A model generated the notes under the pieces. That model saw only the letters and a list, made by a program, of their open reading frames with translations, ran no database searches and was not told the origin of the DNA. This document shows positions 19,435-62,952 of a DNA stretch of 64,000 nt, one piece after another (positions within the stretch are counted from its first letter, which is position 1; every line of letters begins with the position of its first letter). Location of the stretch: NCBI GenBank assembly GCA_022565795.1, contig JAIUMA010000001.1, forward strand, positions 124,001 through 188,000, read 5' to 3'. The position numbers were made by a program, and so were the translations under genes. The DNA is from Balneolia bacterium. GTDB lineage: Bacteria > Bacteroidota > Rhodothermia > Balneolales > Cyclonatronaceae.

Positions 19435-20379
19435 ATGAATAAATCGCAGCTTACGGCAGAAGTCAGGCGGGAAGCCGAACGACTCGGTTTCGAAGGCTGC
19501 GGTTTTTCACAGGCCGGTTTCTTAAAGGATGAGGCCATCCGGCTCGAAGAATGGTTAAAGAGCGGTAAGCATGGGCAAATGAGCTGGATGGAAAATCATT
19601 TTGATAAACGTGTTGATCCAACCAAACTTGTTCCGGGTGCAAAAAGCGTAGTTAGCGTGCTCTGCAGCTATCACCAACCTGATTTAGCTGCCTCACACAT
19701 AGAGGACGAGCAGAATCCGAAGATTTCTAAATATGCACTTGGTGAGGATTACCACTATGTATTGAAGGACAAGCTCTTTCAGCTTTTTGAGTTTACACGG
19801 CAGCTAAACGGAGGACTTGAGGGACGTGTATTTGTAGATTCAGCTCCGGTAATGGACAAAGCCTGGGCCGTAAAATCGGGTCTTGGCTGGATGGGGAAGC
19901 ATACGAATATTATTAACAGGTCACACGGCTCCTGGTTCTTTCTTGGGGAAATGATTGTTGATGCCGAGTTTGAATATGACTCTCCTACTACGGATCACTG
20001 CGGGAGCTGCACGAGATGCATCGACGCCTGCCCCACCGATGCCATCACTGAGCCTTATCAGGTTGATGGCAGCAAGTGTATCTCCTATTTCACTATCGAG
20101 CTACGTGAAGAAATTCCGTCAGAATACCATCAGAAGCTGGGTAACTGGATTTTTGGATGCGATATTTGTCAGGACGTTTGCCCGTGGAACAGAAAAGCAG
20201 GTGCAGGTAGCGAAGAGCGGCTTTTTGCCCGGGAGCCTCTGCTTAGTCAAAATCTTGAGTACTGGGAAGAGCTCGATTTGATGGAGTTCCGAAAACTATT
20301 CAAAAAGAACCCTGTTAAACGCACCAAGTTTGAAGGACTGAAACGAAACGTTGAGGCTGTTAAAGATAACCTCAAATAA
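19435..20379 (+). CDS. queG: Epoxyqueuosine reductase QueG
   Basis: Cobalamin- and iron-sulfur-dependent enzyme that reduces epoxyqueuosine to queuosine in the anticodon wobble position of GUN tRNAs. The catalytic aspartate fits D135 in Val-Asp-Ser-Ala-Pro-Val. Two [4Fe-4S] sites are visible: Cys189/192/195 with Cys199 (Cys-x-x-Cys-x-x-Cys-x-x-x-Cys-Pro), and a second set at Cys242/245/249 (Cys-Asp-Ile-Cys-Gln-Asp-Val-Cys-Pro). At 314 residues it is the short form without C-terminal HEAT repeats. Thus the organism makes queuosine and needs cobalamin for it, as IcmF also does. A candidate queuosine-modifying glycosyltransferase lies at 61831-62952. Confidence 0.96.
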   Translation: MNKSQLTAEVRREAERLGFEGCGFSQAGFLKDEAIRLEEWLKSGKHGQMSWMENHFDKRVDPTKLVPGAKSVVSVLCSYHQPDLAASHIEDEQNPKISKYALGEDYHYVLKDKLFQLFEFTRQLNGGLEGRVFVDSAPVMDKAWAVKSGLGWMGKHTNIINRSHGSWFFLGEMIVDAEFEYDSPTTDHCGSCTRCIDACPTDAITEPYQVDGSKCISYFTIELREEIPSEYHQKLGNWIFGCDICQDVCPWNRKAGAGSEERLFAREPLLSQNLEYWEELDLMEFRKLFKKNPVKRTKFEGLKRNVEAVKDNLK

Positions 20380-57225: not shown

Positions 57226-58410
57226 TTAATTGTCTGTTTTAAAGTGTTTGCTCAGCTTAAGGTCCTGGCCCTGATAGTTACTGTTGATGTCGAATCCATA
57301 AGTGAATTCAGGTATGGACGTGTTAGCTTCAAACAGCATACTGAAAAAGGTCTGACCGTCTTCAATAAGGAACGGCACATCATGAGACCGGACTTCAAGT
57401 ACAGCTCTTGCACCACCTTTGGCATCACCGAAACCGCTGTCGAAGAAGCCTGCGTAGTGAGTCCTCAGCTCACCAGAGCCCGTATCATAGGGTACCATTT
57501 CACCGGCAAGATAGTCGGGAATACGGCATCGTTCTTTAGAGGCGAAAATGTAGAATGCCTCGGGTTCAAGAATCATATACTCCTCTTTACCGGCATAAAT
57601 CGGTTCCCAGAAGTCAAATCGGGAGTAGTGGTTAATTTTGTTGAGATCGATAACTGCCCGGTTTTTCCTCGCCCTGTAGCCTATGATGCCTTCACCATTT
57701 CCTTTCAGATCAACGCTCATAAAAAGACCGTTGTCTACTTTTAGATCGTTTTCTGAAATCGGATTATTATGCTCGTCGAAAAGAAGCGGTGACAGCACAT
57801 GCGCGCGCAAAATTTCGTTATCCGAGAGTCTGCTGTTGCCATGGCGAAGGCGAATCTGATTCAGACGCTGACCAGTCTGAACACGAACCGGAAAAGACTT
57901 AGGCACTACCTCGAGATACAGCGGGCCTTTGTAGCCTGGAGCTATCTCTTCAAAACGATGGGAGTAGTCCGTTACGAGGCGGGTAAAAATATCGAGCCGT
58001 CCTGTTGTGCTTTTCGGATTTGTCCGTGCACTGATTCGGCTTTCTGTTTCAAGTACAAGCACATCATCAAGACCTTCAACAGAATACGATTCCTGTATAT
58101 TAGTTGGCAGGTTGAGGTTTTCGAGAAGCGGAATAATGTATGTACAGTTTGGCTCGAGTACACTGCCGTCTTCAAGTGAAAACTGATGCTGACAAAGCTT
58201 GTCGATTTTGCTCTCGACGGTATCATTCTCAGGCAGAAAGCCACAGCGTACACGATAGGCAACCTTTCCAAGCCTCAAGTCTATAGAGTTGGGCTGGAAC
58301 TGGTTATCCTCAATCGGATAGTCCTTGTCGCTTTGAATAACACCATACCTGACCAGCTCTTTGAGCTTTTGAACCGGCAGTATCCCCTTTTTTCGAATTG
58401 TTAATTTCAT
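57226..58410 (-). CDS. dcd: dCTP deaminase, tandem-domain type
   Basis: 2'-deoxycytidine 5'-triphosphate deaminase, producing dUTP for thymidylate synthesis. At 394 residues it is about twice the usual dcd, consistent with two fused dUTPase-fold domains, as in the DCD_N/DCD_C families. The first has Pro-Asn-Ser-Ile-Asp-Leu-Arg-Leu-Gly and Ser-Arg-Ile-Ser-Ala-Arg-Thr-Asn-Pro-Lys-Ser-Thr-Thr-Gly-Arg. The second has Ser-Gly-Glu-Leu-Arg-Thr-His-Tyr-Ala-Gly-Phe-Phe-Asp-Ser-Gly-Phe. A catalytic Glu pair could be placed only by alignment. Confidence 0.93.
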   Translation of the reverse strand: MKLTIRKKGILPVQKLKELVRYGVIQSDKDYPIEDNQFQPNSIDLRLGKVAYRVRCGFLPENDTVESKIDKLCQHQFSLEDGSVLEPNCTYIIPLLENLNLPTNIQESYSVEGLDDVLVLETESRISARTNPKSTTGRLDIFTRLVTDYSHRFEEIAPGYKGPLYLEVVPKSFPVRVQTGQRLNQIRLRHGNSRLSDNEILRAHVLSPLLFDEHNNPISENDLKVDNGLFMSVDLKGNGEGIIGYRARKNRAVIDLNKINHYSRFDFWEPIYAGKEEYMILEPEAFYIFASKERCRIPDYLAGEMVPYDTGSGELRTHYAGFFDSGFGDAKGGARAVLEVRSHDVPFLIEDGQTFFSMLFEANTSIPEFTYGFDINSNYQGQDLKLSKHFKTDN

Positions 58411-58625: not shown

Positions 58626-61600
58626 TTACTTGATGAGCGTCATCTTTCTTGTGAAAGACTCTCCGTTCTCAAGCTGCATGCGGTACATGTAAATACCACT
58701 TGCCAATCTCGATGCATCGAAACTGATGGTGTGCGTACCTGCATTCATCCGCTGGTTTGTAGCCAGTGTGGCTACAACTCGTCCAGTGATGTCATATACA
58801 TTGAGCGTAACCTGCTGCTCGGCCGGCAGCTCAAACTGTATGTTAGTAATCGGGTTGAACGGATTCGGGTAGTTCTGTGCCAATCCTGCTCTCCTTGGCA
58901 GCTCATTACCAGGCTCATCAATGCTTACAGGAGGCACGTTAAAAGTATCCTGTCCACCGGCCTGCCAGTAGCGTGCGCCGTATTCCTGGAAATACTCATT
59001 TGCAACCCGTGCATTTCTAATAATTAGCGTATTTTCATCATTTCTGAAATTAGCATTGGCCGACCAGTTGTGTGATCCGGTAATTACGGTAGCATTTTCA
59101 CCGGCGAGCTCTCCATCTACAATGGCAAGTTTATGGTGAAGCAGTCCGAATTCACCCTGAGGCAGGTGGTGTACATCTGCCCATCCACTGAGGTAATCAA
59201 ACTCGTTGCCCTGCCCTGTTACCTGACCAAACACACCGCGTACTTTTACACCGCTGTTAAAACGGCTGAGCATGGTGTTCGAAATCGCACGACGGGTATG
59301 AATGTTAAGATTCAAATCGATGGTCTCCTGGGCGCTGGCAAGAGTTCTGTTGATTTGTGCTTCGGTATTGGCCTGCGGACTAAAGTAGAGCTGCACATAG
59401 GTCTCGTCATCACCAATCCAGAACGCAGACGCATTCACTATTTCTTTATTTTCGCTGAAGCGAGCCGCTGAGGAATTGAAAGGTCCGGATTCACCTCCCC
59501 ACATCTGGTTAAACTCTCTCCAGTACGCACGGGCCAAAGCAACATCCTGAATATTCAGCATGTTCTGAAACTGTTGGAACGTACCGGAATCGGTAGCATT
59601 CCAGGAACTTGTAATAACCCATGAGCGCGACGGATCCTGATGGTGTGCATCAATCACAGCAAACTTGTTATGCATTTGCTCCTGACCCAGACTCTGAACG
59701 GCGGGCACGCCAGCCGATGAGAGTGCTGAGATAACCGGGTTGGTATTTCCTGTATGACCCGAACCAATCACGCGTACTTCAACGCCGCGGTTATGCGCAT
59801 TAATAATAGCATCGCGAATGGCCTCACCCACAGTACCGCTGATTGAGTAGAATGCGAACTCAGCCGTTTCTTCTGCCATATCGATATATGAAATAAGCTG
59901 CTGACTGAAATCGATGTTTTGATCTGCTTCCCTGAAAACAGCAAGTTCATGTGCTACATCTTTGTTGAAGTAGCTAAGAATCTGACCGGTAGAGCCTTGT
60001 GGCGAAGCCGTTGAAGTGATGTAAACAGAAGTTGCGCTGGTATCTGCATCAATGGCAGAGCGCAATTGCACTTTGTAGGTGCTTGCAGCATCGAGACCGG
60101 AAATCGTAACGCTGTGATTCGTCTTTGGGGTTTCATCAACGATAGCTCCAAGCTCAAAAGATGATGTTGTTCCGAAACGAATTTCGGTATGACCCGGCTG
60201 CTGTGTTTCCCACTCGAACGTAATACTGTCCTCAGTTGACGAGGTCTCGTATGGCGGCGCAGAAACGATTACCGGACCGCTTGTAATTACGATATCAGAA
60301 CGGAAACGAGGCAGAATCTGGCGGGTATTCATAAAGCGTCCCGCAACACCGGTTACTTCTGATGTACTATTCGGGATATTGGCACCCGGGATATTAGTGA
60401 AGTTATCAACGCGAAGCTGTCCTTCACCAGACTGATCAAAGATATCGTAGTTTGTGCCTCCGGAGAATATACCGGATGCTTCAAATTCCAAATCATTAAT
60501 GCGAATCAATTGCGACTCGAAGTTTCCGGAGTTGAGATCATCAAGCGTAATATCAAGTGGTTCCTGCGGATTGTTTCCTTCAGGGAATATTTCATAAGAA
60601 GTGTAGTTAACCACCTGGAGCAAGTTGTTGAAATTGCCTAATTCGCCGGTCACAACAAGTGAATCGCCAATTATGGCATCAACCTGCCAGTTATTTCTCA
60701 TAATTTCATTGTCGTACCATGCCATACCTCCGGTTTCATCCTGGAAGTAAATCGGACCTGCAAACTGATCGGTAACGGTAATCCATCCGGCTACAGTTAC
60801 AGTCGTTCCCTGCGGAAGCTGACGCGCTTCTGCAATAGAAATTGGAGTACTGGTGTCAAGTGTTTCAGCCTCAAGATTCAGTGTATACGATTCGTTATCG
60901 GGATCGTTTGTGATAAGGGTGATAGAGCCTGTGTCGAAGCCAGGAGACTGTGCTTCATAAACAAGCGTTACGTTCTGCGCTTCGAGAGATTCAAGCGTCA
61001 TTTCAAGATTTCCCTCAACAGAGAAATTCGGACCGCTGATTTGTGCTCCGGTAATCTCTAATGGCTCAAGACCATCATTGCGAATTCTCATCGTTGCGGT
61101 TGCAGATCCGGTAGTCGTTCCAAAATTGAAGGTTTCGCCATTTGCGTAAGGCACATCATTCACACGAACAAAGATTGACGGATCTTCCGGCGAATCGATA
61201 AACGGCTCAATAAGTACATCATCAATACTGATTCTGTTTCCGGCCGTGCGCTCAAGACGAATGCGGACGTTACCGGCGATATTTTCATTAAGTGTATACT
61301 GCTCAAGCGTGCTTCCGAGAACAATAGGCTCTCCAAGATCAGACCATGAAGAACCGCCGTCGGTTGAGTATTTGGCCTGAACGATTCCGCCATTGTCGCC
61401 ACTAAATCCTGAGTTAGCAGCATAGAAGGATAGTTCACTTAAACCATCCGGAAAGTCGAATTCCATCTGGATATAACCGGCACGAACCCGGGCAGACTGG
61501 GTGCCGTTTCTGAGGTCGCCCTCTGCGTTTCCCAGCAATGCATCGTTAAAGAACCAAACGCCTGTGCCAAGAGTGACGTTGGCCGGCGCGTAACCACCTT

Positions 61601-61697
61601 TAGTTCCATCTTCAAAATTTTCAAATAGCTGAGCGTGAAGGGATACAGGTAAGATTAGAGTAAATAAAAGAACTGATAGTTGTAGTAGGTATTTCAT
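58626..61697 (-). CDS. Secreted phospholipase-D-like protein with T9SS sorting domain
   Basis: A 1023-residue secreted protein. A signal peptide ends near Ser-Leu-His-Ala-Gln (about 23). A beta-sandwich at about 25-165 has jellyroll character. A choice-of-anchor-like segment and an OB-like domain (about 280-470, with Thr-Val-Ala-Gly-Trp-Ile-Thr-Val) follow, then an Fn3 domain (about 475-570). Two PLD catalytic motifs are present: His676-x-Lys678 with Asp683 and His854-x-Lys856 with Asp861, each with a downstream Ser-Ser-Trp-Asn or Gly-Ser-His-Asn. The last 80 residues are a type IX secretion type A sorting domain (Asn-Tyr-Pro-Asn-Pro-Phe-Asn-Pro). The substrate may be phospholipid or nucleic acid. 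It is exported to the cell surface or medium. Confidence 0.92.
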   Translation of the reverse strand: MKYLLQLSVLLFTLILPVSLHAQLFENFEDGTKGGYAPANVTLGTGVWFFNDALLGNAEGDLRNGTQSARVRAGYIQMEFDFPDGLSELSFYAANSGFSGDNGGIVQAKYSTDGGSSWSDLGEPIVLGSTLEQYTLNENIAGNVRIRLERTAGNRISIDDVLIEPFIDSPEDPSIFVRVNDVPYANGETFNFGTTTGSATATMRIRNDGLEPLEITGAQISGPNFSVEGNLEMTLESLEAQNVTLVYEAQSPGFDTGSITLITNDPDNESYTLNLEAETLDTSTPISIAEARQLPQGTTVTVAGWITVTDQFAGPIYFQDETGGMAWYDNEIMRNNWQVDAIIGDSLVVTGELGNFNNLLQVVNYTSYEIFPEGNNPQEPLDITLDDLNSGNFESQLIRINDLEFEASGIFSGGTNYDIFDQSGEGQLRVDNFTNIPGANIPNSTSEVTGVAGRFMNTRQILPRFRSDIVITSGPVIVSAPPYETSSTEDSITFEWETQQPGHTEIRFGTTSSFELGAIVDETPKTNHSVTISGLDAASTYKVQLRSAIDADTSATSVYITSTASPQGSTGQILSYFNKDVAHELAVFREADQNIDFSQQLISYIDMAEETAEFAFYSISGTVGEAIRDAIINAHNRGVEVRVIGSGHTGNTNPVISALSSAGVPAVQSLGQEQMHNKFAVIDAHHQDPSRSWVITSSWNATDSGTFQQFQNMLNIQDVALARAYWREFNQMWGGESGPFNSSAARFSENKEIVNASAFWIGDDETYVQLYFSPQANTEAQINRTLASAQETIDLNLNIHTRRAISNTMLSRFNSGVKVRGVFGQVTGQGNEFDYLSGWADVHHLPQGEFGLLHHKLAIVDGELAGENATVITGSHNWSANANFRNDENTLIIRNARVANEYFQEYGARYWQAGGQDTFNVPPVSIDEPGNELPRRAGLAQNYPNPFNPITNIQFELPAEQQVTLNVYDITGRVVATLATNQRMNAGTHTISFDASRLASGIYMYRMQLENGESFTRKMTLIK

Positions 61698-61830: not shown

Positions 61831-62952
61831 CTACTTTTTTGAAACCTTTTTCACTCTCTCCAGCTCCCGGTCAATTGTCATAATGTGCGTACGCCAGTCC
61901 AGGTGGGCGTTTATACTTCTGAGCGTATTTTTGGGCAATGGCTTCACTTTCCCCTGAAGAAGTCGCCGCATTTTTTTGAAAAGATCATCTTCGTCTTCAT
62001 AAAATACAGGAGCGTGAAGCAGCGGCTGGTGCAGCGATTTTGGAATCAGTTCCGGATACGTTAAGTCGTTAGGTACCATTGGATGACACCCGCAGTAAAC
62101 CGCCTCCATTAGCGCCGTACAGAAAAACTCGTAGCGTGAAGTTGACAGCACAACGTCACCGGAGTGAAGCAGTTCGGCATATTTCTGTGTATCCGACACA
62201 AATCCGTAATGGAGAATTCGGTCGCCGTACCTGTCGCGCATCTGCCGCAGCTCCGGACTCTCCGTCTGAAGCTGATCGCCGGCCAGTATAAGATCGAAGT
62301 CGGTATCTGCATCATCCAGTCTGTTTATGATGCGATTAAACATCTGCGGATTCCGGTCGTACTCCCAGCGCTGATTCCACACAACAACCGGTGCTCGCTT
62401 CGATAATGAAGCTTCTGTTTTGATGTTTAACTTGTTGAGCTCAATTCCGGGATAAACCACTTTGCTTTTAGCCTGAAGCTGCTCATTCAACCCTAAATAT
62501 CTGCGCTCGGAGTATTTTTTCAGAAAAACGGGAAGCGCGTTGAAGAACTCATCATAATGAAACTGTGAGGAAAACCAGAGCTCATCGGCAACCAGAGCGC
62601 TCAAATAGTTTATATAGCAATAGGTCTCATCACGATCCTCGCCCAGCGGTAACGGCATGGTGAGCTGGTTTTCATGCATGTACATAATGCAGGGCGTATG
62701 CGCGAATCTGGGATTAGTGAGCGCGATGAAAGCGGGCAAGTTGGTCATCGAGCTGGCAAATATCACATCGATATCTTCTTTTACCTCTTTTGTCTCATCA
62801 GCCAGTGTTACCGCTCCCCCGCTCATTCGCCATTTCCATGAGATATCACTCAGGCTCACGGGAAAAACCGTGTGAGCAGAGTGCTTGCAAAATCCATCCA
62901 TGAAGGCTTTGTGGGATCCGCCGGAGTAAGGCTCGAGGTAGAGAATATTCAT
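61831..62952 (-). CDS. GTDC1/QTMAN-like glycosyltransferase (DUF3524), candidate tRNA-queuosine mannosyltransferase
   Basis: A 373-residue cytosolic GT-B glycosyltransferase. The N-terminal half matches the DUF3524 domain of animal GTDC1: Ser-Gly-Gly-Ser-His-Lys, Trp-Lys-Trp-Arg-Met-Ser, Phe-Ala-Ser-Ser-Met-Thr-Asn-Leu and Tyr-Met-His-Glu-Asn-Gln-Leu. The C-terminal half has Asn-Gln-Arg-Trp-Glu-Tyr-Asp-Arg-Asn-Pro, Leu-Ser-Thr-Ser-Arg-Tyr-Glu-Phe-Phe and Met-Glu-Ala-Val-Tyr-Cys-Gly-Cys-His-Pro, a donor-site block very close to GTDC1. That enzyme (QTMAN) mannosylates queuosine in tRNA-Asp. Since queG is also present, the same reaction is plausible here, but other glycosyl acceptors cannot be excluded from sequence. 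It is a single gene. Confidence 0.85.
   Translation of the reverse strand: MNILYLEPYSGGSHKAFMDGFCKHSAHTVFPVSLSDISWKWRMSGGAVTLADETKEVKEDIDVIFASSMTNLPAFIALTNPRFAHTPCIMYMHENQLTMPLPLGEDRDETYCYINYLSALVADELWFSSQFHYDEFFNALPVFLKKYSERRYLGLNEQLQAKSKVVYPGIELNKLNIKTEASLSKRAPVVVWNQRWEYDRNPQMFNRIINRLDDADTDFDLILAGDQLQTESPELRQMRDRYGDRILHYGFVSDTQKYAELLHSGDVVLSTSRYEFFCTALMEAVYCGCHPMVPNDLTYPELIPKSLHQPLLHAPVFYEDEDDLFKKMRRLLQGKVKPLPKNTLRSINAHLDWRTHIMTIDRELERVKKVSKK

What the first reader, a model, noticed from the sequence alone, without database searches (positions are those of the whole stretch)
61831..62952. Bacterial homologue of the queuosine mannosyltransferase in a queG-bearing chromosome
The protein resembles animal GTDC1/QTMAN along its whole length, including both the DUF3524 part and the GT-B donor block. 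QTMAN makes mannosyl-queuosine in tRNA-Asp. queG at 19435-20379 shows that queuosine is made in this organism, so the acceptor exists. Mannosylated queuosine would be a little-explored bacterial tRNA modification. The homology is recalled by motif, the activity is inferred.
Basis: partly seen in the sequence, partly recalled or inferred. Interest (0 to 1): 0.78.

Follow-up and report, generated by a model that had tools for sequence, protein, structure and literature searches.

The report
Bacterial relative of tRNA-queuosine mannosyltransferase
A Balneolota bacterium carries an intact relative of the animal enzyme that puts mannose on the modified tRNA base queuosine, but related bacteria keep the same gene after losing queuosine altogether, so its real target is still open.

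Summary
The ORF at 61831-62952 (-) is a complete 373-aa protein. It matches the whole QTMAN_N profile (171.7 bits) plus a GT4-type C-terminal domain, and is about 35% identical over its length to human GTDC1 (a sequence recalled from memory). The AlphaFold model (pLDDT 88) is a GT-B fold close to retaining GT4/GT5 enzymes. The host genome has Tgt, QueA and QueG, so it can finish queuosine on tRNA, but no clear QueC, so the precursor is probably salvaged.
In favour: 59 of 60 gene-bearing genomes sampled have Tgt, and in Chloroflexota none of 37 Tgt-less genomes has the gene (p = 0.014). Against: a complete Salinibacter-like genome lacks Tgt, QueG and QueC and has a damaged QueA motif, yet keeps this gene with every conserved residue. 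Its sister genome also lacks Tgt and QueG; dN/dS between the two copies is 0.12, so selection is not relaxed. Twelve of 19 genomes in the sister family carry a second, divergent copy. Glycosylation of queuosine-tRNA remains the best single guess (about 0.5). A queuosine-independent acceptor in this clade is a serious rival. Bacterial family membership is already reflected in Pfam; activity is untested in the papers I could search.

The parts
61831..62952 (-). QTMAN-family GT-B glycosyltransferase gene, 373 aa
62443..62949 (-). QTMAN_N domain (PF12038), residues 2-170, the putative acceptor lobe
   Evidence: full profile 1-168/168, 171.7 bits
61954..62409 (-). GT4-type donor domain (Glycos_transf_1 / Glyco_trans_1_4), residues 182-333
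   Evidence: 39.6 and 40.9 bits
62104..62130 (-). E-x7-E motif (E275...E283), catalytic signature of retaining GT4 enzymes; E275 is kept in GTDC1, 18 of 19 Chloroflexota and 113 of 114 Rhodothermia-type copies, and is Asp in the second copy of Balneolaceae
62665..62676 (-). HENQ motif (H93-Q96) of the N-terminal domain, shared with GTDC1
62356..62370 (-). RWEYD motif (R195-D199) at the start of the donor domain; R195, W196 and D199 near-invariant, shared with GTDC1
19435..20379 (+). queG, epoxyqueuosine reductase, evidence for the final step of queuosine formation
   Evidence: (TIGR00276, 355.5 bits)

Best explanation
The protein is a cytosolic, retaining GT-B (GT4-type) glycosyltransferase of the QTMAN/GTDC1 family. 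It most likely transfers a hexose, probably mannose from GDP-mannose, onto a hydroxyl of the cyclopentene-diol of queuosine at position 34 of a Q-bearing tRNA, giving a glycosyl-queuosine. Shown: full-length family membership by sequence, a confident GT-B model, conservation of the family motifs, a host genome with Tgt, QueA and QueG, and a mannose-1-phosphate guanylyltransferase-like gene. Inferred: the acceptor (Q34), the sugar (mannose), which tRNA is used, the cytosolic location, and any effect on decoding.
For: QTMAN_N over the full profile. About 35% identity over both lobes to recalled GTDC1. Motifs shared with GTDC1 (GGSHK, WxWR, HENQLxxP, RWExDxxP, EFFxxxxxEAVYCGC) are largely conserved across about 150 bacterial copies. 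GT-B model at pLDDT 87.8, pTM 0.86, whose best PDB matches are retaining GT4/GT5 enzymes, E 3.6e-13, and include PimA with GDP-mannose. Tgt, QueA and QueG are in the host. In Bacteroidota 39 of 40 gene-bearing genomes have Tgt and QueG and 40 of 40 have QueA. In Chloroflexota 20 of 20 gene-bearing genomes have Tgt against 144 of 181 others, Fisher p = 0.0136. GDP-mannose pyrophosphorylase-like genes in 12 of 12 genomes tested. The neighbours are not a polysaccharide cluster. The animal enzyme attaches alpha-mannose to the allylic 3-OH of Q in tRNA-Asp (PMC12518689, PMC8654956).
Against: A complete Salinibacter-like genome (G143) has the gene but no Tgt by two models, no QueG and no strong QueC, and its QueA has lost the AAPTAGLHF and GTFR motifs kept in its relatives. 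Its QTMAN copy keeps all 62 positions invariant in the family alignment, and dN/dS against a sister copy whose genome also lacks Tgt and QueG is 0.12, the same as for a pair from Tgt-bearing genomes. No Tgt, QueA or QueG relative lies near any fetched QTMAN copy. Within Bacteroidota the co-occurrence says little, because 20 of 20 gene-less genomes tested also have Tgt. The Chloroflexota test is weak and not corrected for phylogeny. The tree does not place GTDC1 with this clade rather than with other bacterial copies.
Confidence: 0.5

Rival explanations
1. In Rhodothermia the protein glycosylates an acceptor that does not require queuosine (another tRNA or RNA nucleoside, a nucleotide-like metabolite, or a protein), either instead of or besides Q-tRNA; the animal Q activity is one specialisation of a broader family.
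For: The gene is kept intact and under purifying selection in a lineage without Tgt, QueG or clear QueC and with a damaged QueA. It is present in 37 of 37 sampled Rhodothermia genomes against 3 of 111 other Bacteroidota, although the gene-less Bacteroidota tested mostly have the queuosine genes. Several acceptor-lobe positions vary by lineage (HDNQFTRP in Balneolaceae, HENALTYP in Rhodothermus-like copies).
Against: Motifs shared with GTDC1 across the full length imply a similar substrate. In Chloroflexota no Tgt-less genome among 37 has the gene. Loss of Tgt in one lineage could be recent or compensated by an enzyme too divergent to detect.
Confidence: 0.33
2. An ordinary GT4 glycosyltransferase of envelope polysaccharide, glycolipid or thiol metabolism that happens to carry a QTMAN_N-like lobe.
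For: The donor domain is a standard GT4 domain, and the nearest solved folds are MshA, BshA, HepE and glycogen synthase.
Against: The N-terminal lobe matches a dedicated family at 171.7 bits. Neighbours are varied (for example MutL, DnaB, isocitrate dehydrogenase, peroxiredoxin), not envelope clusters. The sequence starts directly with the QTMAN_N domain, without room for a signal peptide. Presence in every sampled genome of the class is unusual for envelope enzymes.
Confidence: 0.12
3. A drifting relic with no current function in this lineage.
For: Some Balneolaceae copies have changed motifs (E94D, E198Q), and that family often has a second copy.
Against: The window copy keeps HENQ, RWEYD and E-x7-E, and dN/dS to its nearest relative is 0.04.
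Confidence: 0.03

Closest known systems
QTMAN / GTDC1, animal tRNA-queuosine alpha-mannosyltransferase (Zhao et al. 2023, as cited in PMC11705514, PMC12313893 and PMC12518689)
   Same: Both domains, motif order, E-x7-E, about 35% identity over 345 residues
   Different: Lacks the roughly 100-residue insert between the lobes; bacterial host with its own queuosine-finishing enzymes; activity untested; Salinibacter-like relatives keep it without Tgt
Second QTMAN_N copy of Balneolaceae ('A-type', L082-L087, L089-L092, L101, L102) and its kin in other Bacteroidota (L109-L111)
   Same: Same two domains, 35-40% identical to the window protein
   Different: Separate clade (96/94 with the other Bacteroidota copies), Asp at E275, V at S270, H at Q194; absent from the four sampled genomes of the window's genus
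GT4/GT5 retaining enzymes MshA (3c4q), HepE (4xsu), PimA with GDP-mannose (2gej)
   Same: GT-B fold, retaining GT4-type donor domain
   Different: 12-16% sequence identity; small-molecule, polysaccharide or lipid acceptors (from established knowledge)

Membership tests
QTMAN family (PF12038 QTMAN_N plus GT4 domain) | QTMAN_N domain above Pfam's cut-off (25 bits), full length | tested here: met
   171.7 bits, profile 1-168/168
QTMAN family (PF12038 QTMAN_N plus GT4 domain) | C-terminal GT4 donor domain with E-x7-E | tested here: met
   PF13692 and PF00534 matches; E275/E283 kept; GT-B model
QTMAN family (PF12038 QTMAN_N plus GT4 domain) | Similarity to the characterised animal enzyme along both domains | tested here: met
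   34.8% over 345 residues against a GTDC1 sequence recalled from memory; not verified against a database
tRNA-queuosine mannosyltransferase (function) | Acceptor present: queuosine on tRNA | tested here: inconclusive
   Tgt, QueA and QueG in the host, but no clear QueC and no nucleoside data
tRNA-queuosine mannosyltransferase (function) | Gene found only where Q-tRNA can be made | tested here: not met
   59 of 60 sampled gene-bearing genomes have Tgt, but G143 and its sister G353 have the gene without Tgt or QueG
tRNA-queuosine mannosyltransferase (function) | Donor available: GDP-mannose | tested here: inconclusive
   Mannose-1-phosphate guanylyltransferase-like gene at 349.6 bits to TIGR01479, below that model's cut-off for the two-domain protein
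tRNA-queuosine mannosyltransferase (function) | Orthology to GTDC1 rather than to another bacterial branch | tested here: inconclusive
   Tree unresolved; AU p = 0.318 for GTDC1 joined to this clade
tRNA-queuosine mannosyltransferase (function) | Transfer of alpha-mannose to the allylic hydroxyl of Q in tRNA-Asp | not testable with these tools
   needs enzyme assay or LC-MS

The most novel reading that the evidence does not exclude
The Rhodothermia branch of the QTMAN family acts on an acceptor that is not queuosine, which would explain why it is near-universal in the class and survives loss of Tgt, QueG and QueC in the Salinibacter lineage; manQ formation in animals would then be a specialisation of an older RNA or small-molecule glycosyltransferase.
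Probability: 0.33. Interest if true: 0.7.

Novelty: new member of a known kind. Interest (0 to 1): 0.45.

Why it matters
If bacteria make glycosylated queuosine, a modification described in the papers read here for animals would have a wider distribution, and gene knockouts in bacteria would let its role in decoding be tested. The Salinibacter exception is at least as useful: a lineage without a detectable queuosine pathway that keeps this enzyme is a natural test of whether the family's substrate is really queuosine.

Tried and rejected
Horizontal or phage origin: no match in phages or plasmids by tblastn, and the window copy sits in a clade made only of Rhodothermia-type copies. Queuosine operon: no Tgt, QueA or QueG relative in any flank of a QTMAN locus. 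Solved relative by sequence: none, only chance-level hits. Position of GTDC1 in the tree: unresolved because of its long branch, even with the insert removed. Literature on bacterial glycosyl-queuosine: nothing found in the held open-access library; the founding paper (Cell 2023) is not held, so a published bacterial test could have been missed. Motif drift in some Rhodothermia copies was checked as a sign of Tgt loss and does not follow it: sampled genomes with HDNQF, HENALTYP or HKNPL-type motifs mostly have Tgt.

Full report
What is there. The ORF at 61831-62952 on the minus strand is complete (373 aa, ATG). Pfam finds QTMAN_N over its whole profile (171.7 bits) followed by a GT4 donor domain. 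QTMAN_N is the current name of DUF3524 (from knowledge). The AlphaFold model has mean pLDDT 87.8 and pTM 0.86. Its best matches among solved structures are GT4/GT5 retaining enzymes (glycogen synthase, MshA, HepE, BshA, and PimA with GDP-mannose), at 10-17% identity. The calculated pI is 6.1. Sequence search against the PDB finds no real relative.

Whose genome. The closest records are Balneolia/Balneolales MAGs, 91% to about 55% identical. The gene is found in all 37 Rhodothermia-class genomes sampled (no same-class genome appears among the listed negatives), and 3 of the 111 other Bacteroidota have it. It also occurs in 20 of 201 Chloroflexota. Trees put the window copy in a clade that holds all 21 Rhodothermia-type copies sampled, support 100/100. 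Twelve of 19 genomes of the sister family carry a second copy that groups with copies of other Bacteroidota. That second copy has Asp where the window copy, nearly all Chloroflexota copies and GTDC1 have Glu at the first position of the E-x7-E motif. Where GTDC1 attaches cannot be resolved.

Is queuosine available. The host has Tgt, two QueA copies and QueG. Only weak partial QueC hits are found in it and in G054, while G003, G030, G351 and G352 give about 212-218 bits. By the scheme in PMC11130926 this pattern fits salvage of preQ0 or preQ1, though QueD, QueE, QueF and transporters were not tested. A mannose-1-phosphate guanylyltransferase-like gene is present.

Does the gene follow queuosine. 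In Bacteroidota 39 of 40 gene-bearing genomes have Tgt and QueG, but so do nearly all gene-less ones tested, so this is uninformative. In Chloroflexota all 20 gene-bearing genomes have Tgt against 144 of 181 without the gene, p = 0.0136, not corrected for phylogeny.

The exception. G143 (two contigs, 99% complete; the 3,551,823-base chromosome matches, from memory, Salinibacter ruber DSM 13855) has no Tgt by TIGR00430 or PF01702 even at E = 1, no QueG and only a weak QueC-like fragment. Its QueA still matches the Pfam family at 403.5 bits, but reads AAPKSTLHFT and GRGKSKPV where its Tgt-bearing Rhodothermales relatives read AAPTAGLHFT and GLGTFR or close variants. Its QTMAN copy keeps all 62 invariant positions of alignment A1. 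The sister copy L073, 86% identical, lies in a genome that also lacks Tgt and QueG (2.6 Mb, a MAG, so weaker evidence). dN/dS between the two is 0.12, the same as between L051 and L074, whose genomes have Tgt; it is 0.03-0.06 in several other pairs. The next relative L065 lies in a genome with Tgt, QueG and QueC. So queuosine appears to have been lost in this lineage while the glycosyltransferase was kept.

Surroundings. In the window the upstream gene is a peroxiredoxin and the downstream gene a T9SS-sorted PLD protein. Elsewhere the common neighbours are MutL, a ComF-like phosphoribosyltransferase, isocitrate dehydrogenase, DnaB and others, which I named from their sequences without a family search. 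No Tgt, QueA or QueG relative was found in the flanks, and no polysaccharide cluster was apparent.

Verdict. The homology claim is confirmed and family membership is met by every sequence test. The functional claim is plausible but unproven. I put glycosylation of queuosine-tRNA at 0.5, a queuosine-independent acceptor in this clade at 0.33, and an ordinary envelope or metabolite enzyme at 0.12. Mannose in particular rests only on the animal enzyme (alpha-mannose on the allylic 3-OH, PMC12518689, PMC8654956).

Noticed in passing
L100, L141 (genome G143) and L073 (genome G353): Salinibacter-like genomes lack Tgt and QueG, and G143 has a QueA with altered motifs, yet both keep an intact QTMAN homologue.
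   Followed up: partly
L139:1975-3018 and L140:2754-3740 (genome G000): The host and all sampled Balneolales have two QueA-family genes; one (L139) reads PTATMHF and GWGTFR instead of PTAGLHF and GLGTF, so it may have a different role.
   Followed up: partly
L082-L087, L089-L092, L101, L102: A second, divergent QTMAN_N protein in 12 of 19 genomes of the sister Balneolaceae-like family, with Asp replacing the first Glu of E-x7-E.
   Followed up: partly
L116, L117, L119, L121-L125, L128-L130, L132, L134 (sister-family copies): Window-type copies of that family often carry HDNQFTRP or HENQFTRP and RWQFD in place of HENQLTxP and RWEYD, in genomes with and without the second copy.
   Followed up: partly
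genome G000: No clear QueC although Tgt, QueA and QueG are present; suggests queuosine precursor salvage.
   Followed up: no
window 58626-61697 (-): 1023-aa protein with PLD-like domains, DUF5689 and a T9SS sorting tail, a likely secreted nuclease or phospholipase, directly downstream of the glycosyltransferase.
   Followed up: no
window 57226-58410 (-): Two-domain dCTP deaminase (DCD_N plus DCD_C).
   Followed up: no
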